DNA from: Thermodesulfatator indicus DSM 15286
GTDB lineage: Bacteria > Desulfobacterota > Thermodesulfobacteria > Thermodesulfobacteriales > Thermodesulfatatoraceae
Direction: 5' to 3'
DNA length: 64,000 nt
Assembly: GCF_000217795.1 (NCBI RefSeq)
Contig: NC_015681.1
Location: 1,789,244-1,853,243 of the forward strand
The notes beneath the pieces are model-generated. The model made no database searches. It was not told the origin of the DNA and worked only from the letters and a program-made list of their open reading frames with translations. Positions 1,806-55,125 of this stretch are shown here, piece after piece. Each line of letters begins with the position of its first letter. The stretch's first letter is position 1. A program made the position numbers and the translations under genes.

Positions 1806-2070
1806 CAATTAGGGACACCACGAGGGGCTCGAAAGTCCTGACGAAGTGCCCCCTAAGACTGCTTCGCTACGCTCGCAGTGACAATGAGAAAATGTCATTA
1901 CGAGGAGTGAGAATGCGCGACGAAGTGACCCAGCCGGGTCATTACGAGGAGGCCCGTAGGGCCGACGAAGTAATCTCACAGGCTGAGATCGCCGCGACGC
2001 CATTTGTGCATCGCCACAAGGACTGCTTTGGTATCTAGATCTTTCGCTTCGCTCAGGACAAGGGCTGAAA
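1806..2070. repeat. REP-like palindromic repeat cluster
   Basis: This gap holds several copies of the dispersed repeat arms (CACGAGGGGCTCG, GTCATTACGAGGAG, GGCCCGTAGGGCCGACGAAG, GACTGCTTCGCTACGCTCGCAGTGAC), ending in CTTCGCTCAGGACAAGG. Open frames through it are compositional artefacts. No gene is seen in 1721-2085. Confidence 0.85.
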
Positions 2071-5154: not shown

Positions 5155-5670
5155 CCGTCACAGCGAGGAGCTATCTCCCCCAAATCGTCACTGCGAGGGG
5201 CCTTTCCCTTTCTGTCACTGCGAGCGGAGCCTTCTCCATTCTGTCACTGCGAGGGGCCTTTCTCACCTGTCACTGCGAGTGGAGCGAAGCAGTCTCTTGG
5301 ATGAGAGATCGCCACGGCGACTGTGTCGCCTCGCGACAAGGATTGCTTCGGCTGCTAACGCAGCCTCGCAACGACAAAATAAAGGGCGCGGCTCGCAATG
5401 ATAGCCCCCTACTTGTCACCGAGAGGAGCCTTCTCCATTCTGTCACTACGAGGAGGCTTCCCCAACCGTCACTGCAAGGAGCGCGTATGCGCGACGAAGC
5501 AGTCTCATAGATTACTTCGCCGGCTCTGCAGACCTCTTCGTAATAGCACAGCTGGGCTACTTTGTCGGTCCTGCGGGCCATTTTGTAATGACCCCGTCTG
5601 GGCACTTTGTTTATAAGCAATGACAAAATTACTTCGCCGTAATAACTGCGTTGCCTGGCAATGATGTTTT
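5155..5670. repeat. Large REP-like palindromic repeat cluster
   Basis: About ten repeat arms in both orientations (GTCACTGCGAG, GTCACTACGAGGAGG, CTCGCAACGAC, GTCACTGCAAGGAG) with the sub-module GATCGCCACGGCGACTGTG and a reverse copy. Frames crossing it encode repeat-type peptides only. No gene is seen from 5068 to 6026. Confidence 0.9.
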
Positions 5671-5779: not shown

Positions 5780-5975
5780 AGTATCACTGCGAGCTAAGCG
5801 CAGTAGTCTCAGGGATTGCTTCGGCTGCTAACGCAGCCTCGCAACGACAAAATAAAGGGCGCGGCTCGCAATGACACCCCCACCCGTCACTGGGAGGAGC
5901 CATCTCCCCAAATCGTCACTGCGAGGAGCCGAAGGGAGATCCCTTCGCTGGCGCTCGGGACAGGCGAAGCAGTCT
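5780..5975. repeat. REP-like palindromic repeat cluster upstream of the CoA-binding gene
   Basis: Repeat arms ATCACTGCGAG, CTCGCAACGAC, CTCGCAATGAC, GTCACTGGGAGGAG and GTCACTGCGAGGAG, plus the module CCCTTCGCTGGCGCTCGGGACAGG. It ends just before a promoter-like TTGCAG (5991) - TATAGT (6013) pair. Confidence 0.85.
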
Positions 5976-6026
5976 CTCAAATTTTTAAAGTTGCAGGAAA
6001 TGTTTGCTTAGCTATAGTGGAAAAAT

Positions 6027-6571: not shown

Positions 6572-6930
6572 GAGATCTTTGCAAAATTCAGGAAAATATA
6601 GATTGATCGCCACAGCGCTTAGCGCTTCGCGACAGGGATTGCTTCGGCTGCTGGCTCAGCCTCTCAATGACACCACCTCTGTCACTGCGAGGAGGCCCGT
6701 AGGGGAGATCCCTTCGCTGTGCTCGGGACAAGCGAAGCAGTCCCTGGGATTGCTTCGGCCTCTAGCGAGACCTCGCAATGACAGTGTTAATTAAGGCCTC
6801 GCAATGACAGTGTTAAATTAAAACCATACAATGACTCTTTGTGGTTATCACTGCGAGCCTATTTTCTATCTGTCACTGCGAGCCAATATGGGCGAAGCAG
6901 TCTCTTAAATAAATATTTTGCAAAGGTCTC
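6572..6930. mobile_element. MITE-like element with terminal inverted repeats, filled with REP-like repeats
   Basis: The left end GAGATCTTTGCAAAAT (6572-6587) and right end ATTTTGCAAAGGTCTC (6915-6930) are inverted copies with one mismatch. Both are flanked by TATTA (6567-6571 and 6931-6935), a candidate 5-bp target duplication. The interior carries several palindromic repeat modules (CTGTCACTGCGAGGAGG, CCTCGCAATGACAG) and no coding frame that I would accept. Any transposase would have to act in trans. The right-hand TATTA supplies the stop codon of the adjacent minus-strand pilin gene. Confidence 0.65.
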
Positions 6931-15527: not shown

Positions 15528-15860
15528 TCATTGTTGCGAGGCTGCAGTAGCAGCCGAAGCAACCTCAGAGACTGCTTCGTCGGCACTTCGTGCCTCCTCG
15601 CAGTGACAGAAGAGGGGCGGCTCCTCGCAGTGACGGTGAGGGTTTCATTGAGAGGCTGCTCACCATCATTGTTATTCATTGTCATTGCGAAGCTGTTCTC
15701 CATCATTGTCATTGCGAGGGGCGAAGCCCCGAAGCAATCCTTGTCGCGAGGCGACACAGTCGCCATGGCGATCTCAAAGATCCCTTCGCTCCGCTCGGGA
15801 CAGGGACTGCTTCGCTTCGCTCGCAGTGACGGTGAGGTTCTCCTCGCAGTGACAGGATAG
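15528..15860. repeat. REP-like palindromic repeat cluster
   Basis: Many arms (GTCATTGTTGCGAGGC, CTCGCAGTGAC, GTCATTGCGAAG, GTCATTGCGAGGGGCGAAG, CTTCGCTCGCAGTGAC) and the sub-module TTGTCGCGAGGCGACACAG. It is followed at 15860-15950 by degenerate GCCGATGGC and pyrimidine-rich CACCCCTTACCCCTC microrepeats. No gene is seen in 15471-15951. Confidence 0.9.
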
Positions 15861-19903: not shown

Positions 19904-21553
19904 TCAAAACACTATACGCAAAAAGGCCTCTATTTTATCTTTGCTCCCGATAAAAATATCATAGGTCCAAAACAGACCAAAAACCAAACACACTGGAACA
20001 AATACCCACCAGAAACGCCTGCGTTGGTTTTGCCAGAATTCCTTAAAATGCACGACAAAATAAGAGGCATACATACAGAGTAATGGAATTAACGGTAGGT
20101 GATACCGCGAATGCCCAAAAACAATGGCATGAATAGCCGTGAAATATAAGATGAGCAAAACGATCAACCAGTCTACATATCTCTGGGATTGCTTCGTCGG
20201 CTCTAACGAGCCTCCTCGCAATGACATATCTCTTGTCATTGCGAGGGGCCGTCTTCCCTCTGTCATTGCGAGGTCCCCAACGGGGACCGAAGCAATCTCG
20301 TTCTTCCCTAAAGCCCGCCACAAAAGTCCGCAAAAACCAAAGATAACCACAAAGACATAGGCCCCCAAGATACTCAACGAAATCCAGATCTCTACCAATT
20401 TATTACGCAAACCAGGGAAGTAACCTCTTTGCATTCCAGCAATAATTGTGCGTTCAAGCTGCCAGAAATTGGCTGTTTTTATTAGAGTGCGAAGCGCAGT
20501 CAACCCCGGATTTTCTTTCATAAATTCCAGGGCTTTTTTAATGGCCCAGCGCTGTTTTTCGGCCTCGTTAAGGCCGCCTAACTCTTTTTCGTGGCCGCGA
20601 TACCAGGCAATCTCTGGCGGGTTGTCCACCGCGGCCCAGGCCCGGTGAAGTGGTGTATGTTCGTAGTTGCCCATGTATAGATTGAGGCCGCCCATGGTAT
20701 CTACGGCGATAAAATGTCCAAAAACCTGATAATTGCGGGCTATCCAGGGAGAAAGGGTGAGCACCGTGGCGAAAATAAAAAGGATTCCCGCGAAAAGCCC
20801 CTGTTTTTTGTTAGGTGAAACAAGAAATAAAAACAGGGCAATAAAAGGTGTAAGGGGGTAGGTCACACTACGGGTAAGGCTTGCTAACCCCCAGAAAATT
20901 CCGGCTAAGAGCGAATATATCCACGCCTTGCTATCACGAGACTGCTTCGCTTCGCTCGCAGTGACAGGGTGGGGGGTGTCATTGCGAGGCTTCTCTCCAT
21001 CATTGTCATTGCGAGGGGCGAAGCCCCGAAGCAATCTCGTAGCAAAGCAATCCCTCCCGTCCAACCTGTATAATTGCTCAATTCCTGCCACCAGAAGCCA
21101 CAAAGCCAATAGAAAAAGAAAAATAAAAAGAATTTCCGTCAAAATCAGGTAATTAAAAATCACAAGTGAAGGATAAAAAAGAAACAAGCCTGTAGCCAAA
21201 AGGGCCACTTTTTCTTCGTGAAAAATCTTTTTGGCCAGAGAATAAACAAGAAGGCCACTTAATATAGAAAGAAAAATCTGAATTACCCGAACGGCGTTAT
21301 AATTTTCCGGCCCAAAAACTTTATAGACCCCGGCCAGAAAAGCCGGATAAAGCGGCGGCCGAATGGCCGTAGGCTTTCCCGGCGCCCAGCCGTACTCGCC
21401 ACGTTCCAGGATAGCCAGGGCCAACTTATTGTAATGCTGCTCGTCAACGATATTAAGAGGCTGGTGGATAAATAGCGGTAAAAACAAAAGTCTCAGTAAA
21501 AGCGCTAGAAAAATAAGTAAAATTAGCTTTTTAATAGGTGATTTGCCCACCAT
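19904..21553 (-). CDS. GT39/PMT-ArnT-type membrane glycosyltransferase with two in-frame repeat insertions
   Basis: 549 residues, about ten membrane helices. The first periplasmic loop has the acidic catalytic segment NIVDEQHYNKLALAILERG, and AIRPPLYPAFLAGVYK follows, as in ArnT/PMT-type enzymes that use polyprenyl-phosphate sugars. Two polar segments disrupt the fold: about 44 residues around FATRLLRGFAPRND (20932-21060) and about 41 around AMTEGRRPLAMTRD (20179-20305). Both are translated REP-like repeats kept in frame, each located in a loop between helices. The stop codon also lies in repeat-like sequence. The family transfers sugars to lipids or proteins; the acceptor is unknown. Whether the enzyme still works with these insertions is uncertain. 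Confidence 0.8.
   Translation of the reverse strand: MVGKSPIKKLILLIFLALLLRLLFLPLFIHQPLNIVDEQHYNKLALAILERGEYGWAPGKPTAIRPPLYPAFLAGVYKVFGPENYNAVRVIQIFLSILSGLLVYSLAKKIFHEEKVALLATGLFLFYPSLVIFNYLILTEILFIFLFLLALWLLVAGIEQLYRLDGRDCFATRLLRGFAPRNDNDGEKPRNDTPHPVTASEAKQSRDSKAWIYSLLAGIFWGLASLTRSVTYPLTPFIALFLFLVSPNKKQGLFAGILFIFATVLTLSPWIARNYQVFGHFIAVDTMGGLNLYMGNYEHTPLHRAWAAVDNPPEIAWYRGHEKELGGLNEAEKQRWAIKKALEFMKENPGLTALRTLIKTANFWQLERTIIAGMQRGYFPGLRNKLVEIWISLSILGAYVFVVIFGFCGLLWRALGKNEIASVPVGDLAMTEGRRPLAMTRDMSLRGGSLEPTKQSQRYVDWLIVLLILYFTAIHAIVFGHSRYHLPLIPLLCMYASYFVVHFKEFWQNQRRRFWWVFVPVCLVFGLFWTYDIFIGSKDKIEAFLRIVF
20179..20305. repeat. REP-like repeat inside the GT39 coding region (3' copy)
   Basis: CTCTGGGATTGCTTCGTCGG to CGAAGCAATCTCG, with arms CTCGCAATGACA and GTCATTGCGAGG. 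It is in frame and stop-free on the minus strand, adding about 41 residues between two membrane segments. Confidence 0.85.
20932..21060. repeat. REP-like repeat inside the GT39 coding region (5' copy)
   Basis: CACGAGACTGCTTCG to AGCAAAGCAATCCC, including CTCGCAGTGACAGG, GTCATTGCGAGG and GGGGCGAAGCCCCGAAG. It is translated in frame on the minus strand, adding about 44 residues. Confidence 0.85.
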
Positions 21554-21664
21554 TCTTTTCTCTTTTGTGTTTGGCCAGGGATGTCTCTTTGCGTGTCCCC
21601 TTCAGTATCATCATACAAGCCATGTTTCTCTTTCTGTCATGCGAGTCCTTTTTACTTTGTAATT

Positions 21665-21815
21665 ACGAGCCCCGTCCCCTTCCCGTCATTGCGAGGGGCG
21701 AAGCCCTGAAGCAATCCCTAGAGATTACTTCGTCGGCCCTGTGGGCCTCCTCGTAATGATAAAAAAAGAAGTCATTACAAGCCCCGTCCCACTTTTTGTC
21801 ATGCGAGTCTTTTAT
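21665..21815. repeat. REP-like repeat cluster between GT39 and sulfotransferase genes
   Basis: Contains GTCATTGCGAGGGGCGAAG, GATTACTTCGTCGGCC and CTCCTCGTAATGA, preceded and followed by short ATTACGAGCC / ATTACAAGCC half-arms. No coding sequence is seen in 21554-21844. Confidence 0.85.
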
Positions 21816-21844: not shown

Positions 21845-22768
21845 TTACCAATCATAACCTTTTTCATATCCCAATTTAATTAGTAAATCTCCTGCTATTT
21901 TTTTAAAAATTTCTTTTTCTTTTTCTGAAAAGTGATTTCTCCAGTCACCAGAAACACCTTTGCGATAAAAACTTTTTTTATTTGCCTCTCCTCTTTTTCT
22001 TCCAGTTCTAAACTCAAAAGAAGACTTATGTATCATGTTTTCTAAAATATCGTTAGTATAATTAAGCCCTAAAAAATTAAGTATTTTTATAGCTATCGCT
22101 TTGTTATTGTTCAACATTTCTTCGTAAGAAATAGAAAATAATCCATATTCTTTTTCATATTGTAGCTGATATTCAATCATTTCTTTCCAGAGCTTTACGC
22201 TTTCTTCAAAGTCCCAGGGTAAATTCATGTTTTTAGCATAATACCTATGAGAAACTACAAAATCTCTTCCATCTCTATAAACTACTATTAGCTTGCTATT
22301 TGGATATGTGTTTTTTATACGTGGTATAGACCGTACATGGTCAGCACTTTTTTCTATTAAGCATTTGGGATTAAATTTCTTGATAAAATATCCAAAGAAT
22401 TCCTGACAATATTTCTCAGGGTCTTCAATTTTAAGAAGTTTTCTTTTTAACTTGTAACGTTCATTTAGACTTAAAGAATACTTAGTTAGTGGTTGTTCTA
22501 TATTTTTAAGGCCAACTACGGGTTTCCAGTATTTTCTCACAGGATTTAGTATCTTTCTGGCAAAAACTTTGATAAAAGGAGTACTCACTTCTGCCCAAGC
22601 TGTTTTATAGAAAAGAATTTTTGTTCTTTCCTTTGGTGACTTATTAAATGCATATTTAAAAAGATTAGTTTCTGCCAATCCGATGATATCAGGGTGTAAG
22701 CTAAGCATATTAATTAACCAAGTAGTGCCACATTTATAATGGCCAACAATAAAAGCAATACTAGACAT
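21845..22768 (-). CDS. Sulfotransferase (PAPS-dependent type)
   Basis: 307 residues. The 5'-phosphosulfate-binding loop IAFIVGHYKCGTTWLINML is at the N-terminus; the 3'-phosphate motif is KLIVVYRDGRDFVVSHRYY near residues 150-168. The family transfers sulfate from PAPS to a hydroxyl or amine of a carbohydrate, lipid or protein. One of three sulfotransferases in this polysaccharide region, which suggests sulfation of the exported glycan (inference). The end of the preceding GT4 gene overlaps its start by 8 bases. Composition is more AT-rich than the adjacent ligase gene. PAPS synthesis genes are not in the window. Confidence 0.85.
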   Translation of the reverse strand: MSSIAFIVGHYKCGTTWLINMLSLHPDIIGLAETNLFKYAFNKSPKERTKILFYKTAWAEVSTPFIKVFARKILNPVRKYWKPVVGLKNIEQPLTKYSLSLNERYKLKRKLLKIEDPEKYCQEFFGYFIKKFNPKCLIEKSADHVRSIPRIKNTYPNSKLIVVYRDGRDFVVSHRYYAKNMNLPWDFEESVKLWKEMIEYQLQYEKEYGLFSISYEEMLNNNKAIAIKILNFLGLNYTNDILENMIHKSSFEFRTGRKRGEANKKSFYRKGVSGDWRNHFSEKEKEIFKKIAGDLLIKLGYEKGYDW

Positions 22769-24170
22769 GGCTAACTACCTCATAAACTCTCCTAGAAACC
22801 AAAGACCAATCATGTTTTCTAGCCCAGAGGCGGGCCGCCTCTCCCATTTTTTGGCGCAGGTTCTTATCCTGCGCCAGGCGCCTGATAGCTTCCTTTAGTT
22901 CATTCAAGTTATTCCCATCAATTACAAAACCAGTTTCCTCGTGGCGTACGGCCTCAGGCTGGCCGCCGATATTTCCGGCAATAGAAGGAAGCCCCGCGGC
23001 GGCGGCTTCCATAAAAACAATGCCAAAACCCTCAATCATTGGCCCCACCTGAATGGAAGGCATAACATAAATATCTGCCGCGCAAAAACTCTTGATCTTT
23101 TCTTCTTCGGATATTTTACCCAAAAATTTAACCCAGGGTTCAAGATTATATTCTTGAACCATGTTTTTAAGCTTTCTTTCTTCTTCGCCAGATCCGGCTA
23201 TCACATAAGCCAAAGGAAGGCCCTCTTTTCTTAATTCTGCTACCGTTTTAATAACCGCGGCCTGGTTTTTCCTCGGCTCCATGCGCGCCACAGTCAGTAA
23301 AATTACGGTGTTTTCAGGGAAACCCCACTTCTGCCGATATTTTTGGCATTCTTCTTCAGGGATTTGATATTGCTCAAAATCCACACCCAGATGGACTACA
23401 TGTATCTTGTTTTCATCGCAGAATTCGGAGGCCAATCTTTTGGTAGAAAAACTATTAGCAATTACCAAATCTGATATTCGCAAGGCCTGCCTGGTTAACC
23501 AGCCAAGCTCTTTGCTGGTTTTGGCTACCAGGAATTCTTCTCCATGGGCATAGGTAACAATTTTTAGTTTGTCTTTCCATAAAAATTTTAGCCAGAGCAA
23601 ATTAGCCGCCTCGGGAATGGCTTTTACCACATGAATGGTGATAGGTTTTTCGATTTTTTTGAAGAATTGCCATAAAAGATAGGTGTTTTTAAAGAAATTT
23701 CTGTCAATGCCCCAGGAGGAAACGCAGAAAGGAAACCTTATAATTTCCAGAGGGTGCTCTTTTGGAAAGATTACTTCGTCGGCACTTTGTGCCTCCTCGT
23801 AATGACAAATGGAGGAGTTATTGCGATCTCCGTCCACCTCATTGTCATTGCGAGGCTCACCCCCATTTTTGTCATTGCGAGGCTGCGTTAGCGGCCGAAG
23901 CAATCCCAGAGACGGCTTCGCTTCGCTCGCAGTGACAGGGTGGGATGTTTCATTGCGGGGCTGCTCTCCATCATTGTCATTGCGAGGGGCGCTCTTTATT
24001 TTGTCATTGCGAGGGGCGAAGCCCCGAAGCAATCTCCCAGAAGAAACCCCAGAAGTAACGATCACGGCTGGGCGAGGCCAGTAACAGGCTACCTTATAAA
24101 GCCAGAGGTGAGCCCCACCTACTTTAGGGAAAAAATCATAAGTGAAAAAAAAATCAGCTCTCTTTCTCAT
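22761..24170 (-). CDS. GT4 glycosyltransferase with a large in-frame repeat insertion
   Basis: About 469 residues from the ATG at 24170 (a TTG at 24188 is in frame). The N-terminal GT-B domain opens FFFTYDFFPKVGGAHLWLY; the donor-binding domain has VILLTVARMEPRKNQ near residue 300, and the GT4 signature AAAAGLPSIAGNIGGQPEAV near 405. Between about residues 40 and 135 lies a segment of about 95 residues made entirely of REP-like peptides (LLRGFAPRND, SEAKPSLGLLRPLTQPRND). It splits the N-terminal Rossmann-like domain but keeps the frame open. The gene overlaps the O-ligase gene upstream by 17 bases. Acceptor and sugar are unknown; activity depends on whether the insertion is tolerated. Confidence 0.8.
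   Translation of the reverse strand: MRKRADFFFTYDFFPKVGGAHLWLYKVACYWPRPAVIVTSGVSSGRLLRGFAPRNDKIKSAPRNDNDGEQPRNETSHPVTASEAKPSLGLLRPLTQPRNDKNGGEPRNDNEVDGDRNNSSICHYEEAQSADEVIFPKEHPLEIIRFPFCVSSWGIDRNFFKNTYLLWQFFKKIEKPITIHVVKAIPEAANLLWLKFLWKDKLKIVTYAHGEEFLVAKTSKELGWLTRQALRISDLVIANSFSTKRLASEFCDENKIHVVHLGVDFEQYQIPEEECQKYRQKWGFPENTVILLTVARMEPRKNQAAVIKTVAELRKEGLPLAYVIAGSGEEERKLKNMVQEYNLEPWVKFLGKISEEEKIKSFCAADIYVMPSIQVGPMIEGFGIVFMEAAAAGLPSIAGNIGGQPEAVRHEETGFVIDGNNLNELKEAIRRLAQDKNLRQKMGEAARLWARKHDWSLVSRRVYEVVSHV
23767..24052. repeat. REP-like repeat cluster inside the GT4 coding region
   Basis: About 286 bases with four or more arms (CTCCTCGTAATGAC, GTCATTGCGAGGC, CTTCGCTCGCAGTGAC, GTCATTGCGAGGGGCGAAG), open in the GT4 reading frame on the minus strand. 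It is about three times the size of the other coding insertions, consistent with successive insertions. Confidence 0.85.
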
Positions 24171-25434
24171 CAGCAGACTTTTTAGCAAGATAAATAAGGG
24201 TATTAGCCAAAATAGCTAGATAAAATTGTATTTCAAAGCCGTTCAAAGTTAAAAACATGGAACAACCTAAAAAGCCACAAAGCGAGACCAATACCGCGTC
24301 ACATAAATAATATTCCAGCGAATCTCGCGGAAATGAATTACGGTATTTAAACACGCCCCAAAGGCAGCTTAGCATAAATAAGAGATAAAATAAAATGGCA
24401 AAAATGCCTGATTCCGCCGCAATTTGGACAAAGGTATTGTGAGCCATGCGAGGAGTTTTATCTGAATAAAAGGGAAAGGCCTGTGTAAAAGAGGCTAAGC
24501 CTACCCCAGTCAAAGGGTTGTCAAGCAGCATTTTGAGCCCGGCATCCCATGCTTCCAGGCGGGTGCGAGCCGAAGATTCCTCTTCATAAGTGGTAATGGT
24601 TTGGGCCCTGTGTTTAATGACAGAGCCTCCCTGCCATATATAAGCAATAATAAAGGCCGGAATAAGGGCTATGCCGATAATCTTCTTAGGGCTCCGAAAA
24701 GCAGCCAGAAGGCTAACCAACCCTGCCCCTACCAGCCCTCCTCGCGAAGCGGTGAGGAAGATAGCGTGCCAGGCAAAGGGCACCACCAGCCAGGCCCCCC
24801 AGCGTAAATACCAGCGTTTAAAATACCAGCCCAAATAAAAGAAAAAGGGAATAGCCGTTACAAAGAGCATGGCAAAGTTGTTTTCGTCAGAATACATGCC
24901 TGCTCCGGTTATATCTCTAGGGCCGGAGAGCCGTATAAAAAAGCGCCCGGAAAGGTACTGCATATTGGCCCAGTAAGTCAGATATAAAGCCGCAATTGGT
25001 AGTATGAAGGCAAAGTACTTAAGTTTTTTATGTTCCGAGATACATACCAGCCCGATAAAATAAAAAGTAAAGACTTTTAGCATGGTAATTAGCACCTGGT
25101 AGGGATCATAAAACCGCCACTGGTTTACCACATCTACATAAGGCCCGGTAAAGTAAGAAAGAAAAACAAAGAAAAAATAAAGTACAGAGAAAATCACCAG
25201 TTTGTTTTTAATAATTTCAAAATTTAGGGCTCCGCGGATAGCCCCAAACAAAAAGCCCAAAATAGTGGGAATGGCAATCATGTAAAATGCTCTAAGTCCC
25301 TGGAAATTCCACCACCAGATGTATTGCGGCCCCAAGATGTTGAACATATAACCGGCACATACTCCGAACCAGGGATTGGCCAGGGAATAAAAGGCATTGA
25401 CTACCAGTAGTAAAAATAACGCAATTTTACCCAT
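24154..25434 (-). CDS. O-antigen ligase/polymerase-like protein, exosortase A system-associated type
   Basis: 426 residues with 10-12 membrane helices. The N-terminus (NPWFGVCAGYMFNILGPQYIW, FQGLRAFYMIAIPTILGF) matches the putative O-glycosylation ligase family associated with exosortase A. The Wzy_C/WaaL region is ARTRLEAWDAGLKMLLDNPLTGVGLASF near residues 288-315, followed by MAHNTFVQIAAESG with the loop His of ligases. Known: WaaL/Wzy-fold enzymes transfer or polymerise lipid-linked glycans on the periplasmic side. No exosortase gene lies in the window, so the subtype suggests the locus continues or is linked elsewhere. It starts a set with the GT4 and sulfotransferase genes. Confidence 0.75.
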   Translation of the reverse strand: MGKIALFLLLVVNAFYSLANPWFGVCAGYMFNILGPQYIWWWNFQGLRAFYMIAIPTILGFLFGAIRGALNFEIIKNKLVIFSVLYFFFVFLSYFTGPYVDVVNQWRFYDPYQVLITMLKVFTFYFIGLVCISEHKKLKYFAFILPIAALYLTYWANMQYLSGRFFIRLSGPRDITGAGMYSDENNFAMLFVTAIPFFFYLGWYFKRWYLRWGAWLVVPFAWHAIFLTASRGGLVGAGLVSLLAAFRSPKKIIGIALIPAFIIAYIWQGGSVIKHRAQTITTYEEESSARTRLEAWDAGLKMLLDNPLTGVGLASFTQAFPFYSDKTPRMAHNTFVQIAAESGIFAILFYLLFMLSCLWGVFKYRNSFPRDSLEYYLCDAVLVSLCGFLGCSMFLTLNGFEIQFYLAILANTLIYLAKKSADEKES

Positions 25435-25469: not shown

Positions 25470-25760
25470 TCTGTCATTGCGAGCCACGCCCTTTATTTCG
25501 TCATTGCGAGGGGCGAAGCCCCGAAGCAATCCCTAGAGATTACTTCGTCGGCCCTGCAGGCCTCCTCGTAATGACAGAAGGGGAACGGCTCCTCGCAGTG
25601 ACAAGTAGCTATCTCAGAGACTGCTTCGCTCCGCTCGCAGTGACAAGTGGAGATGTCATTGCGAGGCTGCGCCTCCCTTTCCGTTATTTGCGATGCCTCG
25701 TTCCCTTCTGTGTCATTGCGAGCGAGCCGCAGCGAGCGAAGCAATCTCAGACCCTTGCAA
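25470..25760. repeat. REP-like repeat cluster with a well-formed complete unit
   Basis: The clearest single unit spans 25500-25575. It starts GTCATTGCGAGGGGCGAAG and ends CTCCTCGTAATGAC, with two internal hairpins (GGGGCGAAGCCCC, GGCCCTGCAGGCC) around a central AATCCCTAGAGATTA palindrome. Partial copies flank it. No gene is seen in 25435-25780. Confidence 0.9.
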
Positions 25761-26182: not shown

Positions 26183-26223
26183 TATGGTTTTAAGTAAAGG
26201 GCAAAAGCATTAAAGTAAAAAAA

Positions 26224-26391
26224 GTTGGTAGGGAGGGACAGGCTGTTGAGTCATGGAACGTTTGCTTTTTAGCAAACTGTTCGATCGCAAGATTAGCCGT
26301 CCTTCCCTGTGTTTGAACAGTATCCGGGACGTTTCCAATTACGGAAACTGTCCGTATACAAGGCTAAACCTGGAAGGACCTCCCTACCAAC
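26224..26391 (+). ncRNA. Predicted bridge RNA of IS110 copy 1
   Basis: A 168-nt non-coding segment closed by a perfect 13-bp stem (GTTGGTAGGGAGG, 26224-26236; CCTCCCTACCAAC, 26379-26391). Loop 1 has stem GTTTGCT/AGCAAAC with flanking GTCAT (26250-26254) and TCGCAA (26285-26290), matching the target GTCAT-TG-CGA on opposite strands. Loop 2 has stem GGACGTTTCC/GGAAACTGTCC with flanking ACAGTATC (26317-26324) and ATACAA (26356-26361), matching the joined element ends ACAGTATC-TTGTAT. That is the target-loop plus donor-loop layout of IS110 bridge RNAs. Transcription is not shown. Confidence 0.75.
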
Positions 26392-26431
26392 AATCTTTAT
26401 TTTATCTCAAAGAAAGGAGAATTGAAGACCT

Positions 26432-27400
26432 ATGAAAAATTTATCTTTTCTTGGGGTGGATGTGGCCAAGGATACATTGGTTATTTTTGATGGCCAGAAG
26501 GTTTACGAGTTTCAAAATGAAAGGGGTTTAAAGAAATTTAAGAGGAAGTTTTTTAAGAAGAAAGAAGACAGGAAGAAAAGGGTGGTGATATACGAGCCCA
26601 CAGGGCCATATTCGGCATTTCTGGAGGAGTTCTGTGCTACGAATATGATAAAAGTAGTATCCCTTAACCCCAGAAAAGTCCCCCGTTTAAGAGAAGTATT
26701 AGGTCACAGAGCAAAAACAGATAATCTTGATGCGAAACTGTTATACGAATATCACAAGATAGTTAGCGAAGAAGAGATCAAAGAAATAGAATATAACGAA
26801 AATTTAGAGAAATTAGCTTTATTGTTAAGTGAGTATCAATTATATCAAAACATAGAAAACAAGTTATCTAATTTTCTAGAGTATTTAGATAGAGTACCAG
26901 TAGATAGTAAAGAAAGCAAAAAACACATACAGAAAAACTTAGAAGAAACAAGGCAGAGGCTTCAGAAGATAAAGAAAGAGATGGAGGAATTAGTAAATAA
27001 AGATGACGACATAAACAAAGGGGTTAAAGAAATAGAGAAAGTTAAAGGTATAGGGAAGATGATAGCGACATATTGTTACATCTTTTTTCGGAAGAGGCGG
27101 ATAAGAAACCGGCGGGAGGTAGTAGCTCTAGCAGGATTGGACCCGGAAGTAAAGGAATCTGGTAAGAGGAAGCTGGTAACCAGGATAAGCAAGAAAGGGG
27201 ATAATAGGTTAAGGAGTTTGCTTTTTATGGGGGCGCTTAGTGCCATAAGATGTAAAGAAGGGGGACTAAAAGAGTATTACGAAAGTTTGATAAAGAGAGG
27301 AAAACCGAAGAAAGTGGCCATAATAGCCTGTGCCAGAAAATTATTGATATTTGCTTTCTATAATTACAAAAAATGGCAAATGGAAGCTCAAAGTGCTTGA
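26432..27400 (+). CDS. IS110-family transposase (DEDD recombinase), copy 1
   Basis: 322 residues. The N-terminal RuvC-like DEDD domain opens LGVDVAKDTLVIFDG and continues VVIYEPTGPYS and the family hallmark HRAKTDNLDAKLLYEY. The central part is a coiled coil (residues about 130-195). The C-terminal Transposase_20 domain has VKGIGKMIATYCYIFF, ALAGLDPEVKESGKRK and NRLRSLLFMGALSA with the catalytic Ser region. The start follows AAAGGAGA at a proper distance. Such enzymes recombine circular intermediates into a target chosen by the bridge RNA, without long duplications. It differs from copy 2 at only five residues and looks intact. Confidence 0.95.
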   Translation: MKNLSFLGVDVAKDTLVIFDGQKVYEFQNERGLKKFKRKFFKKKEDRKKRVVIYEPTGPYSAFLEEFCATNMIKVVSLNPRKVPRLREVLGHRAKTDNLDAKLLYEYHKIVSEEEIKEIEYNENLEKLALLLSEYQLYQNIENKLSNFLEYLDRVPVDSKESKKHIQKNLEETRQRLQKIKKEMEELVNKDDDINKGVKEIEKVKGIGKMIATYCYIFFRKRRIRNRREVVALAGLDPEVKESGKRKLVTRISKKGDNRLRSLLFMGALSAIRCKEGGLKEYYESLIKRGKPKKVAIIACARKLLIFAFYNYKKWQMEAQSA

Positions 27401-27418
27401 CAAAAACACAGTATCTTG

Positions 27419-36424: not shown

Positions 36425-36760
36425 ATTGCTTCGCGAGAGAGATCGCCACGGCGACTGAGTCGCCTCGCGACAGAAATTGCTTCGCCACTTCGTGGCTCGC
36501 AATGACGAAATAAAAGGCGTGGCTCGCCATGACGAAATAAAAAGCGCCCCTCGCCATGACAAAAAATACTAGCCTCGCCATGACTTCTTTTTTTGTCATT
36601 ACGAGGAGGCCCGTAGGGCCGACGAAGTAATCTCTGAGATTGCTTCGGCTGCTGACTCAGCCTCGCAATGACAAAAAAGAGGGCTCGCCATGACACGTTC
36701 CCTTGTCACTGCGAGCGGAGCGAAGCAGTCTCTTTCCGAGCCGAGCAAAGCAATCTCATA
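36425..36760. repeat. REP-like palindromic repeat cluster
   Basis: Six or more arms (CTCGCAATGACG, CTCGCCATGACG three times, GTCATTACGAGGAGG, CTCGCAATGAC, GTCACTGCGAGCGGAGCG) and the module GATCGCCACGGCGACTGAG. Small hairpins CCACCTCTTGGGTGG (about 36406) and CCACCTTTTGGGTG (about 36820) sit on either side. No gene is seen between 36384 and 37141. Confidence 0.9.
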
Positions 36761-36914: not shown

Positions 36915-37110
36915 GGCTGAGATTGCTTTGGGATGAGAGATCGCTACGGCGACTGTGTCGCCTCGCGACAGGGATTGCTTCAGGGCTTCGCCCTTCGCAA
37001 TGACAAAATAAAAGGCGTGGCTCGCAATGACACCCCCATCTGTCACTGCGAGGAGGCTCGTAGGAGATCCCTTTGCTGGCGCTCGGGACAAGCGAAGCAG
37101 TCTCATTCAT
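36915..37110. repeat. REP-like palindromic repeat cluster
   Basis: Modules GATCGCTACGGCGACTGTG, GGATTGCTTCAGGGCTTCG, CTCGCAATGAC, GTCACTGCGAGGAGG and GCGCTCGGGACAAGCGAAGC. It ends near TTTTCACAAGTCTC (37113-37126), a degenerate form of the MITE-type terminus. Confidence 0.85.
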
Positions 37111-37638: not shown

Positions 37639-37919
37639 GAGACCTTAGCAAAATTTAGAAAATATAGATAGATCATCACGGCGACTGTGTCGCCTTTCGA
37701 CAGGGATTGCTTCGCTCGCCTGAGGCTCCCTCGCAATGACAAATAAAGGGTGTGGCTCGCTCGCAATGATAAAGAAAGGGAGCGATGGCTCGCCATGACA
37801 CCCCCGTCTGTCATTACGAGGAGGCCGTAGGGAGATCCCTTCGCTGGCGCTCTGGACAAGCGAAGCAGTTCATTTCCGAGCAAAGCAGTCTCTTAGGGAT
37901 AGCATTTTGCAAAGATCTT
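37639..37919. mobile_element. MITE-like element with terminal inverted repeats, filled with REP-like repeats (second copy)
   Basis: The left end GAGACCTTAGCAAAAT (37639-37654) and right end ATTTTGCAAAGATCTT (37904-37919) are inverted, imperfect copies of the termini at 6572/6930. Subterminal sequence TTTAGAAAATATAGATAGATC is shared with the first copy (TTCAGGAAAATATAGATTGATC). The interior has repeat arms CTCGCAATGAC, CTCGCCATGAC and GTCATTACGAGGAGG. No clear target duplication. No transposase. Confidence 0.65.
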
Positions 37920-38529: not shown

Positions 38530-38800
38530 TCATGGAGAGATTGCTTCGCTCGCTGCGGCTCGCAATGACTTTTTTTTCGTCATTACGAGGAGGCCCGCAG
38601 GGCCGACGAAGTAATCTCTGAGATTGCTTCGGCTGCTGACGCAGCCTCGCAATGACAAAGAAAGGGAGCGATGGCTCGCCATGACAAATTAAAAAACGGG
38701 CTCGCCATGATACCCTCCCTCTGTCACTCTGTCACGGCAAGCCTGTAGGGCGAAGCAGTCTCGCGCTGGCGCTGGGGATAGGCAAAGTAGTCTAGTTTGT
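38530..38800. repeat. REP-like palindromic repeat cluster
   Basis: Arms GGCTCGCAATGAC, GTCATTACGAGGAGG, GCCTCGCAATGAC, GGCTCGCCATGAC (twice) and GTCACGGCAAGCC, with hairpin GGCCCGCAGGGCC. A promoter-like TTGTCA-N17-TGTAAC (38813-38841) follows before the phosphatase gene. Confidence 0.85.
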
Positions 38801-41937: not shown

Positions 41938-42057
41938 GTCACTGCGAGCGGAGCGAAGCAGTCCCTGTCCCGAGCGGAGCGAAGGAATCTTTGAGATCGC
42001 CACGGCGACTACGTCGCCTCGCGACAGGGATTACTTCGCTCGCCTGCGGCTCGCTCG
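41938..42057. repeat. REP-like repeat interrupted by IS110 copy 2 (left part)
   Basis: GTCACTGCGAGCGGAGCG, CCGAGCGGAGCGAAGG, the module GATCGCCACGGCGACTACG and GATTACTTCGCTCGCC, ending CTCGCTCG (42057). On the far side of the element CAATGACAAATAAA continues it, so removing the element gives CTCGCAATGAC. Confidence 0.85.
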
Positions 42058-42076
42058 CAAGATACTGTGGTTTTTG

Positions 42077-43045
42077 TCAAGCACTTTGAACTTCCATTTG
42101 CCATTTTTTGTAATTATAGAAAGCAAATATCAATAATTTTCTGGCACAGGCTATTATGGCCACTTTCTTCGGTTTTCCTCTCTTTATCAAACTTTCGTAA
42201 TACTCTTTTAGTCCCCCTTCTTTACATCTTATGGCACTAAGCGCCCCCATAAAAAGCAAACTCCTTAACCTATTATCCCCTTTCTTGCTTATCCTGGTTA
42301 CCAGCTTCCTCTTACCAGATTCCTTTACTTCCGGGTCCAATCCTGCTAGAGCTACTACCTCCCGCCGGTTTCTTATCCGCCTCTTCCGAAAAAAGATGTA
42401 ACAATATGTCGCTATCATCTTCCCTATACCTTTAACTTTCTCTATTTCTTTAACCCCTTTGTTTATGTCGTCATCTTTATTTACTAATTCCTCCATCTCT
42501 TTCTTTATCTTCTGAAGCCTCTGCCTTGTTTCTTCTAAGTTTTTCTGTATGTGTTTTTTGCTTTCTTTACTATCTACTGGTACTCTATCTAAATAGTCTA
42601 GAAAATTAGATAACTTGTTTTCTATGTTTTGATATAATTGATACTCACTTAACAATAAAGATAATTTCTCTAAATTTTCGTTATATTCTATCTCCTTGAT
42701 TTCGTCTTCGCTAACTATCTTGTGATATTCGTATAACAGTTTCGCATCAAGATTATCTGTTTTTGCTCTGTGACCTAATACTTCTCTTAAACGGGGGACT
42801 TTTCTGGGGTTAAGGGATACTACTTTTATCATATTCGTAGCACAGAACTCCTCCAGAAATACCGAATATGGCCCTGTGGGCTCGTATATCACCACCCTTT
42901 TCTTCCTGTCTTCTTTCTTCTTAAAAAACTTCCTCTTAAATTTCTTTAAACCCCTTTCATTTTGAAACTCGTAAACCTTCTGGCCATCAAAAATAACCAA
43001 TGTATCCTTGGCCACATCCACCCCAAGAAAAGATAAATTTTTCAT
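42077..43045 (-). CDS. IS110-family transposase (DEDD recombinase), copy 2
   Basis: 322 residues, differing from copy 1 at five positions (for example YSVFLEEF for YSAFLEEF, SEDEIKE for SEEEIKE). The same DEDD motifs are present: GVDVAKD, YEPTGPYS, HRAKTDNLDAKL, and the C-terminal Transposase_20 domain. The start follows AAAGGAGAATTG. It appears intact, so both copies may be active; either could supply recombinase for the other. Confidence 0.95.
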   Translation of the reverse strand: MKNLSFLGVDVAKDTLVIFDGQKVYEFQNERGLKKFKRKFFKKKEDRKKRVVIYEPTGPYSVFLEEFCATNMIKVVSLNPRKVPRLREVLGHRAKTDNLDAKLLYEYHKIVSEDEIKEIEYNENLEKLSLLLSEYQLYQNIENKLSNFLDYLDRVPVDSKESKKHIQKNLEETRQRLQKIKKEMEELVNKDDDINKGVKEIEKVKGIGKMIATYCYIFFRKRRIRNRREVVALAGLDPEVKESGKRKLVTRISKKGDNRLRSLLFMGALSAIRCKEGGLKEYYESLIKRGKPKKVAIIACARKLLIFAFYNYKKWQMEVQSA

Positions 43046-43085
43046 AGGTCTTCAATTCTCCTTTCTTTGAGATAAAATAAAGATT

Positions 43086-43253
43086 GTTGGTAGGGAGGTC
43101 CTTCCAGGTTTAGCCTTGTATACGGACAGTTTCCGTAATTGGAAACGTCCCGGATACTGTTCAAACACAGGGAAGGACGGCTAATCTTGCGATCGAACAG
43201 TTTGCTAAAAAGCAAACGTTCCATGACTCAACAGCCTGTCCCTCCCTACCAAC
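43086..43253 (-). ncRNA. Predicted bridge RNA of IS110 copy 2
   Basis: Identical in layout to the copy 1 segment: 13-bp closing stem (CCTCCCTACCAAC at 43241-43253, GTTGGTAGGGAGG at 43086-43098 on the plus strand) and the same target guides (GTCAT, TCGCAA) and donor guides (ACAGTATC, ATACAA) read on the minus strand. Conservation in both copies is expected because they are recent duplicates, so it is not independent support. Confidence 0.75.
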
Positions 43254-43297
43254 TTTTTTTACTTTAATGCTTTTGCCCTTTACTTAAAACCATACAA

Positions 43298-43440
43298 TGA
43301 CAAATAAAAAAACCGGTTCGCAATGACACCCCCTCTGTCACTGCGAGGAGGCCCGTAGGGCCGACGAAGCAGTCCTTGGGATTGCTTCGGCCTTTAGCGA
43401 GGCCTCGCAATGACAGGGTTAAATTAAGACCTCGCAAGAA
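43298..43440. repeat. REP-like repeat cluster next to IS110 copy 2
   Basis: ATGACAAATAAAAAAACCGG, TTCGCAATGACACC, GTCACTGCGAGGAGG, hairpin GGCCCGTAGGGCC and CCTCGCAATGACAGG. It fills the gap between the element and the tRNA nucleotidyltransferase gene. Confidence 0.85.
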
Positions 43441-48079: not shown

Positions 48080-48205
48080 TCCCGTCACTGCGAGGAGGCC
48101 CGTAGGGCCGACGAAGCAGCCCCTATTCCGAACACAACTAAGGGGTCTCTGAGATCGCCTCAGCGCCGCTCATGCTTCGCGAAGGCAAGGGGCTCACAAG
48201 AGTAT
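48080..48205. repeat. REP-like repeat, partial, with neighbouring GCCAT microrepeats
   Basis: GTCACTGCGAGGAGG, hairpin GGCCCGTAGGGCC and GACGAAGCAGCCCC, then degenerate GATCGCCTCAGCGC. Just upstream (48025-48075) is a run of GCCATCGGCTATCGGCC-type microrepeats also seen at 5757 and 15862. No gene is seen in 47977-48364. Confidence 0.75.
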
Positions 48206-55056: not shown

Positions 55057-55125
55057 CGGTCATTGCGAGCGAAGCGAAGCAATCCCTGAGACTGCTTCGA
55101 CCTCTAACGAGGCCTCGCAGTGACA
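55057..55125. repeat. REP-like repeat, single unit
   Basis: GTCATTGCGAGCGAAGCGAAGC to GCCTCGCAGTGACAG: one complete unit with the central palindrome AATCCCTGAGACTGC. It is the last copy before the 9-kb stretch to the window end that has none. Confidence 0.85.

What the first reader, a model, noticed from the sequence alone, without database searches (positions are those of the whole stretch)
25500..25575. A modular palindromic repeat family fills most gaps from 1.8 to 55 kb
Units have outer arms GTCATTGCGAG / CTCGCAATGAC, two variable inner hairpins (for example GGGGCGAAGCCCC, GGCCCTGCAGGCC, GGCCCGTAGGGCC) and a central GCAATCTC-AGAGA-TTGC palindrome. Frequent extra modules are CCCTTCGCT..CTCGGGAC and GCCACGGCGACTGTGTCGCC. 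The arms are constant while the inner hairpins vary, as if swapped. About twenty clusters are seen here, none in 55.2-64 kb. This is REP/palindromic-unit-like, and no RAYT-type transposase is in the window.
Basis: partly seen in the sequence, partly recalled or inferred. Interest (0 to 1): 0.7.

Follow-up and report, generated by a model that had tools for sequence, protein, structure and literature searches.

The report
REP-like hairpin repeats targeted by IS110
This stretch of bacterial DNA is studded with small hairpin-forming repeats of a known parasitic-looking kind whose spreading enzyme is still unknown; the same repeat occurs in roughly twenty bacterial phyla and in phages, and here a jumping gene appears to use an RNA guide to land precisely inside it.

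Summary
The repeat is real. There are 75 arm matches in the window against 0.5 expected, and 120 exact arms genome-wide against 0 for the reversed control. The window holds 51 full hairpins and about 35-40 'solo' half-units.

Each hairpin is YGTC - 5-bp stem - GA/GAA internal loop - variable inner hairpin - CTC/CCC tail. The stem exists in covarying versions (98% of cells paired; 21 double changes against 6 shuffled).

It matches the CGTC-tagged REP superfamily (Di Nocera 2013), which has no known transposase. A Novosphingobium copy has the diagnostic CGTC tag and CCA tail on the same stem. The genome carries 17 Y1 transposases, but with their own GGGGACAG ends and no arms nearby; a complete relative with 40 units has no detectable Y1 gene.

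Units lie in-frame inside two glycosyltransferase genes and occur as filled and empty sites without target duplication in phages. Exact copies occur in about twenty phylum-level groups.

All nine IS110 copies sit at one point of the arm (GTCATTG|CGAG), and their predicted bridge RNA carries matching guides.

Verdict: a new member of a known kind; the mobiliser remains unknown.

The parts
25500..25533 (+). Full hairpin unit: GTC-ATTGC-GA-GGGGC.GAA.GCCCC-GAA-GCAAT-CCC
   Evidence: sequence; covariance model hit 43.7 bits; DNA fold -8.1 kcal/mol, z -3.2
25536..25575 (-). Partner unit in inverse orientation, stem ATTAC/GTAAT, inner hairpin GGCCC..GGGCC; forms the tail-to-tail dimer with 25500-25533
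   Evidence: 46.2 bits; dimer folds at -18.2 kcal/mol as DNA, z -3.9
25473..25499 (+). Solo half-unit: arm + first bases of an inner stem + pyrimidine spacer, 27 bp, directly 5' of a full unit
   Evidence: 27-bp arm spacing recurs 8 times in the strict count
1855..1977 (.). Cluster of units 1.86-1.98 kb
5157..5544 (.). Cluster with solo arms and a TCGC-stem module
5783..5976 (.). Cluster of units including a nested TCCC-stem module
6635..6904 (.). Cluster; contains a solo arm (6818-6833, - strand) whose spacer begins with the IS110 left-end sequence TATGGTTTTAA
9807..9942 (.). Cluster of units
15530..15853 (.). Cluster including GTCGCGAG..GTGGCGATCTC-type and GATCCCTTCGC..GGGAC modules
20185..20299 (.). 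Units inserted in-frame in the PMT-like glycosyltransferase gene 19904-21553(-)
   Evidence: insert-encoded peptide absent from homologues
20938..21038 (.). Second in-frame insertion in the same gene (peptide DCFATRLLRGFAPRND..VTASEAKQS)
21659..21760 (.). Cluster of units between two genes
23767..24036 (.). Cluster in-frame inside the GT4 glycosyltransferase gene 22761-24188(-), splitting its N-terminal domain
25592..25748 (.). Rest of the 25.5 kb cluster
26183..27414 (+). IS110 element, copy 1, inserted inside an arm (GTCATTG|IS|CTTGCGAG)
26222..26396 (+). Predicted bridge RNA of IS110 copy 1: target guides GTCAT (26250-26254) and TCGCAA (26285-26290), donor guides ACAGTATC and ATACAA
   Evidence: fold -77.7 kcal/mol, z -7.4; guide matches
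26432..27400 (+). IS110 recombinase gene
   Evidence: NF033542 159.7 bits, over its cut-off of 140; PF01548 and PF02371
27416..27585 (.). Remainder of the disrupted arm and following units
36473..36732 (.). Cluster with a run of solo arms (GTCATGGCGAG)
36971..37104 (.). Cluster of units
37703..37892 (.). Cluster of units
38537..38762 (.). Cluster of units
41938..42061 (.). Units flanking IS110 copy 2
42062..43294 (-). IS110 element, copy 2, inserted at the same point of an arm
43317..43414 (.). Cluster next to IS110 copy 2
48084..48123 (+). Single unit
55059..55124 (.). Last dimer in the window

Best explanation
These are non-autonomous REP-like hairpin elements of the CGTC-tagged REP superfamily.

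The unit is one foldable strand: a YGTC tag, a 5-bp stem, a GA/GAA purine internal loop, a freely varying inner hairpin and a short CTC/CCC tail. Units are often paired tail to tail and are accompanied by 24-29 bp tandem half-units.

I think they spread as folded single strands inserted without target duplication, at replication or transcription bubbles, by an enzyme acting in trans that recognises the tag, stem and internal loop but not the inner hairpin. That enzyme is not encoded next to the repeats. Phages that pick the units up are a likely vehicle between lineages.

Shown here: anatomy, stem covariation, genome-wide dispersal, in-frame position in genes, presence/absence at one orthologous phage site, and the breadth. 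Inferred: single-strand mobilisation in trans, and phage transfer.

In this genome the units also serve as landing sites for an IS110 element whose predicted bridge RNA matches the arm. The 9/9 insertions are shown; the guiding is inferred from sequence.
For: Hairpin constraint: on 46 window units 98% of stem cells pair, 21 cells have changes on both sides (6.3 in shuffles, 0/500 as high), and sliding the partner destroys it. The strict motif gives 20 of 22 perfect stems in three versions against 7.5 expected.

Dispersal: 120 exact arms genome-wide, reversed control 0; at least 149 model hits, a lower bound because only 150 of 1,444 candidates were scored.

Mobility: a phage site with identical flanks TCAAGCATCG/GTGTAGAACTCC is filled (37-40 bp) in three contigs and empty in three, with no target duplication. 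In-frame inserts in a glycosyltransferase are absent from homologues.

Class: the 5' base is T or C in 199 of 214 units from other genomes; adjacent pairs are tags-outside in 45 of 61, the reverse in 1. Novosphingobium copies read CGTCATTGCGAG...GAAGCAATCCA with CGTC tag and CCA tail. CGTC REPs lack a dedicated transposase (PMC3733652).

IS110: 9 of 9 copies at one point of the arm; guides GTCAT and TCGCAA in the predicted bridge RNA.
Against: No enzyme was linked to the repeat in any genome examined, so mobilisation in trans is inference. The filled/empty phage site is only about 70% identical in most of its wider flanks, so deletion cannot be excluded there. Stem covariation reflects a few sublineages (three main stem versions), not many independent events. 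Some units do not fold better than shuffled DNA on their own.
Confidence: 0.62

Rival explanations
1. Classical REP/RAYT: the repeats are mobilised by the Y1 transposases of the same genome.
For: 17 Y1 genes in frames of about 290-350 aa in the genome. Across 148 genomes of the phylum, Y1 genes are commoner in repeat-bearing genomes (35/42 against 64/106; Fisher p 0.007).
Against: Their ends, where they could be read, are a different terminal repeat (GGGGACAGGCAAA), and none of the sampled loci has an arm within 1.5 kb. In 60 Y1 loci of other repeat-bearing genomes arms are rare and at background-like positions. Seven repeat-bearing genomes of the phylum have no Y1 match, including G159 with 40 units and full completeness. 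The weak association may reflect genome size or general mobile-element load.
Confidence: 0.15
2. Not transposed: copies arise by replication slippage, template switching at hairpins and gene conversion, and spread between lineages with ordinary DNA exchange.
For: Half-unit arrays of 24-29 bp differ in copy number between related phage contigs as simple tandem duplications. Arms end near the hairpin apex in half-units, as a polymerase jump would leave them.
Against: Slippage explains local arrays, not dispersed single units, in-frame inserts at new sites, or the same 22 defined bases in about twenty phylum-level groups.
Confidence: 0.15
3. MITE-like element moved by a DDE transposase through terminal inverted repeats GTCATTGCGAG.
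For: Dimers have near-perfect inverted ends.
Against: Single 27-40 bp hairpins are inserted alone and no target duplication is seen; no transposase family stood out among 1,502 ORFs near repeats in 238 loci.
Confidence: 0.04
4. Selected RNA element (terminator, mRNA stabiliser or processing site).
For: Conserved stem pairing would also suit an RNA; REPs in general are thought to be often transcribed (PMC3733652).
Against: No Rfam family matches. Units occur upstream, downstream, between divergent genes and inside genes in the window. Copy number ranges from 0 to 137 among genomes of one phylum, and is 0 in the four same-order relatives of the first sample.
Confidence: 0.1

Closest known systems
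CGTC-tagged REP superfamily (Di Nocera, De Gregorio and Rocco 2013, PMC3733652), incl. Neisseria dRS3 and Rickettsia RPE-4/RPE-6
   Same: GTC tag with T or C before it; stem starting with AT; short unpaired tail; inverted dimers; intragenic in-frame units; no associated transposase. Novosphingobium, a genus named there, carries the same stem with CGTC tag and CCA tail.
   Different: Here the stem is 5 bp plus a purine internal loop and a variable inner hairpin; tails are CTC/CCC rather than CCA; clusters and half-unit arrays are common. The consensus sequences of the paper are in a figure that is not held, so identity with one of its four families could not be read off.
GTAG-tagged REPs/REPINs with RAYT (TnpA-REP) transposases (PMC2817692, PMC3116915, PMC8266576)
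   Same: Small imperfect palindromes in hundreds of copies, inverted pairs, single-strand hairpin logic.
   Different: No GTAG tag; no RAYT flanked by the repeat.
TIRYT genes (PMC3733652)
   Same: The 17 Y1 genes of this genome fit: terminal inverted repeats with the GGGGWSAS motif (GGGGACAG).
   Different: They are not associated with the GTCATTGCGAG repeat.
IS110-family elements inserting in REPs by bridge RNA (IS621; PMC11208160, PMC1525189)
   Same: Insertion at one fixed point of a repeat; structured left-end RNA with target- and donor-matching guides.
   Different: A different element and a different target repeat; the bridge RNA is predicted, not tested.
Rickettsia palindromic elements in protein genes
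   Same: In-frame insertion of palindromic repeats in coding genes.
   Different: Different phylum; here two nearby glycosyltransferase genes carry three insertions.

Membership tests
CGTC-tagged REP superfamily | Unpaired CGTC (or TGTC/CCTC) tag at one end | tested here: met
   5' base before GTC: T 38 and C 8 of 51 in the window; T 124 and C 75 of 214 in other genomes
CGTC-tagged REP superfamily | Stem with complementary AT in first and second position | tested here: met
   Pair 1 is A-T in 39 of 42; pair 2 is T-A in 27 and C-G in 15 of 42: met for most, changed with compensation in one sublineage
CGTC-tagged REP superfamily | Stem of 8-9 bp and loop of 4-5 nt | tested here: not met
   5-bp stem, then internal loop, then an inner hairpin of 4-30 nt. 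How the paper counts mismatched stems is not given in the text held, and it notes that loops of other length and composition occur in some families
CGTC-tagged REP superfamily | Tail mostly CCA | tested here: inconclusive
   Window tails CTC 30, CCC 15 of 51: not met here; but Novosphingobium copies of the same stem end in CCA
CGTC-tagged REP superfamily | No dedicated transposase gene flanked by the repeat | tested here: met
CGTC-tagged REP superfamily | Inverted dimers predominate; intragenic units occur | tested here: met
   45 of 61 adjacent pairs tags-outside; in-frame insertions
GTAG REP / RAYT system | GTAG tag | tested here: not met
GTAG REP / RAYT system | RAYT gene flanked by the repeat | tested here: not met
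   own Y1 loci and 60 others
IS110 with bridge RNA (the element in the window) | DEDD and Transposase_20 domains | tested here: met
IS110 with bridge RNA (the element in the window) | Structured end RNA with guides matching target and donor sides | tested here: met
   Fold z -7.4; guides GTCAT/TCGCAA and ACAGTATC/ATACAA; 10 of 20,000 shuffles keep both target guides
IS110 with bridge RNA (the element in the window) | RNA-guided recombination in a cell or test tube | not testable with these tools
   needs an experiment

The most novel reading that the evidence does not exclude
The repeat is a pan-bacterial selfish hairpin that spreads as single-stranded DNA by a mechanism independent of Y1 transposases, carried between phyla largely by phages; IS110 elements exploit it with RNA guides. 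Its mobiliser would be a new activity, possibly a host or phage replication enzyme.
Probability: 0.15. Interest if true: 0.8.

Novelty: new member of a known kind. Interest (0 to 1): 0.45.

Why it matters
What moves the CGTC-type REPs has been an open question since 2013. This case narrows it. It extends the class from the five phyla then listed to about twenty phylum-level groups plus phages, gives a genome with many units and no detectable Y1 gene, and gives phage sites with and without a unit. It also offers an IS110 element whose natural target is this repeat, with the fixed insertion point and candidate guides already read, which makes RNA-guided targeting of repeats directly testable in another phylum. 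Practically, peptides such as 'FAPRND..VTASEAKQS' in protein records can be recognised as translated repeats.

Tried and rejected
RAYT mobilisation: the Y1 genes exist but carry other ends; Y1 loci in 46 other repeat-bearing genomes were checked, and two Chloroflexi cases with nearby arms turned out to be an ordinary gene next to polA.

Unsupervised search for a gene that travels with the repeat: 1,502 ORFs near arms in 238 loci. The large clusters were phage structural genes, not transposases.

Genomes with few copies: single units lie at ordinary spots such as between cas genes.

Generality of IS110 targeting: 11 IS110-type loci in other repeat-bearing genomes, none inserted in an arm.

Close relatives of this IS110 in genome contigs: none found.

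Orthologous sites between this genome and its congener: no overlap with the loci held.

Literature by sequence string: no paper in the held library prints the arm as a repeat.

Rfam: only a tRNA in the window.

Full report
OBSERVATION. Arms with at most one mismatch number 75 in the window against 0.47 expected. The whole genome (one contig of 2,322,224 bp) has 120 exact arms and none of the reversed control. The window holds 27 of those 120, where 3.3 would be expected from its share of the genome (p about 3e-17): the repeats crowd in this island rich in glycosyltransferase and sulfotransferase genes. The size equals, from memory, that of Thermodesulfatator indicus; this was not verified and nothing depends on it.

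ANATOMY. In the window 51 full units and about 35-40 half-units can be read (a few of its listed 'solo' hits, such as 1287, 49922, 51675 and 60929, look like chance). A unit is YGTC, a 5-bp stem, GA on one side and GAA on the other, an inner hairpin of 6-19 nt in most cases, the complementary stem, and CTC or CCC. The stem comes as ATTGC/GCAAT (20), ACTGC/GCAGT (17), ATTAC/GTAAT (6) and GTTGC/GCAAT (2). On an alignment of 46 units, 98% of the cells pair, 21 cells carry changes on both sides against 6.3 in shuffles, and sliding the partner by one column drops pairing to below 20%. A calibrated model finds 57 hits in the window at E below 0.03 and at least 149 in the genome; the latter is a lower bound because only 150 of 1,444 candidates were scored.

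HALF-UNITS. Many full units are preceded, on the same strand, by one or more arms lacking the 3' half. In the window the spacing is mostly 27 bp (8 of 12 in the strict count). In viral contigs of other lineages it is mostly 24-25 bp, and related contigs differ by single such steps. These arrays look like tandem duplications started within the hairpin.

BREADTH. The listed records span about twenty phylum-level groups by title: Chloroflexota, Bacteroidota, Pseudomonadota, Patescibacteria, Omnitrophota, Nitrospirota, Planctomycetota, Gemmatimonadota and others. Many are metagenome bins, but Chryseobacterium, Lacinutrix, Pedobacter, Mucilaginibacter, Sphingopyxis and Chloroflexus genomes are among them. 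Within the phylum of the window 42 of 148 genomes have it, with 0 to 137 copies, and four same-order relatives have none. A congener has 17 arms with a different set of inner hairpins. Viral contigs carry it too, and representative ones encode portal, major capsid and terminase proteins. In other genomes the base before GTC, which the search did not fix, is T or C in 199 of 214 units; adjacent pairs are tags-outside in 45 of 61 and the reverse in 1.

MOBILITY. At one phage site with identical flanks, TCAAGCATCG/GTGTAGAACTCC, three contigs hold a 37-40 bp insert made of one unit plus a fragment of an inverse arm, and three are empty; no target duplication is visible. The wider flanks are mostly only about 70% identical, so direction is inferred, not shown. 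In the window, two clusters lie in-frame in a PMT-like glycosyltransferase gene (19904-21553) and one in a GT4 gene (22761-24188). The alignment of the PMT protein with homologues shows both repeat-encoded stretches as insertions. For the GT4 gene the split of the N-terminal domain is seen in the Pfam match, but the homologue alignment is poorer.

WHAT MOVES IT. The genome has 17 intact Y1 transposase genes, 69-94% alike, outside the window. Where their ends could be read they are AGGGACAGGCAAA...TTTGCCTGTCCC with GGGGACAG, which fits the TIRYT genes of PMC3733652. No arm was found in the eight sampled loci reaching 1.5 kb to each side. Sixty Y1 loci from other repeat-bearing genomes show no consistent association. 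Y1 genes are somewhat commoner in repeat-bearing genomes (35/42 against 64/106, p 0.007), but seven such genomes have none, including a complete one with 40 units. A search of 1,502 ORFs near repeats found no other candidate. The mobiliser is therefore unknown; a single-strand mechanism in trans is my preferred inference because units are hairpins, insert singly, and leave no target duplication.

IS110. The window holds two copies and the genome nine (eight intact, one broken) of one IS110 element. All nine interrupt an arm at the same point: GTCATTG, element, CTTGCGAG. The left end encodes a strongly structured RNA (-77.7 kcal/mol, z -7.4). Its first loop contains GTCAT and TCGCAA, the latter complementary to TTGCGA; its second contains ACAGTATC and ATACAA, which match the right and left ends of the element. 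That is the layout described for IS621 and relatives (PMC11208160), and insertion of such elements in REPs is known (PMC1525189). In 20,000 shuffles of the first loop, 10 kept both target guides in order. Guidance is inferred from sequence. IS110-type genes in other repeat-bearing genomes do not sit in arms, so in this sample the targeting is particular to this element. One solo-arm variant in the genome shares its first eleven spacer bases with the left end of the element, which may be a trace of past recombination.

COMPARISON WITH WHAT IS KNOWN. Di Nocera and colleagues (PMC3733652) defined CGTC-tagged REPs: CGTC or TGTC tag, stem beginning with AT, short tail mostly CCA, inverted dimers, intragenic copies, and no dedicated transposase. 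The units here meet the tag, stem-start, dimer, intragenic and no-transposase criteria. They do not meet the stated stem and loop lengths, and the window tails are CTC or CCC. A bridging case is Novosphingobium: plasmids of this genus, which the paper names, carry CGTCATTGCGAG..GAAGCAATCCA with both tag and tail. The repeat therefore works like, and is most probably related to, that superfamily; strict membership in one of its four published families stays open because the stem and loop lengths differ and the consensus figure was not readable here.

VERDICT. Real, widespread and biologically interesting, but of a known kind. The additions are its extent (about twenty phylum-level groups and phages), the covarying modular anatomy with half-unit arrays, the in-frame gene insertions, the Y1-free high-copy genome, and the 9/9 IS110 insertions with matching predicted guides.

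Noticed in passing
26183-27414 and 42062-43294 (window); seven more copies in the genome (L313, L314, L316-L321): IS110 elements all inserted at the same base of the repeat arm, with a predicted bridge RNA matching target and donor.
   Followed up: yes
L017-L033 (17 places in the genome, outside the window): Seventeen intact Y1 transposase genes with GGGGACAG terminal inverted repeats (TIRYT-like), 69-94% identical, a separate repeat system in the same genome.
   Followed up: partly
6818-6833 (- strand) in the window; also L003, L314, L316, L318: A solo-arm variant GTCATTGTATGGTTTTAATTTAACCCT whose spacer starts with the first 11 bases of the IS110 left end.
   Followed up: partly
L293:2062 onwards: A sister repeat GTCATTCTGAGCGAAGCGAAGAATCTC with the same layout and stem ATTCT/AGAAT.
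   Followed up: no
L323 about 3981-4018: A single repeat unit between what look like cas8 and cas7 genes of a type I CRISPR operon in another genome of the phylum (gene names read from sequence, not searched).
   Followed up: no
L293, L297, L289: A conserved Chloroflexi gene of 424-553 aa with a Y1-like C-terminal domain, next to what looks like polA in all three.
   Followed up: no
L379-L395: The congener G195 has many repeat arms at contig ends, as if the repeats break its assembly; its inner hairpins differ from those of the window genome.
   Followed up: partly
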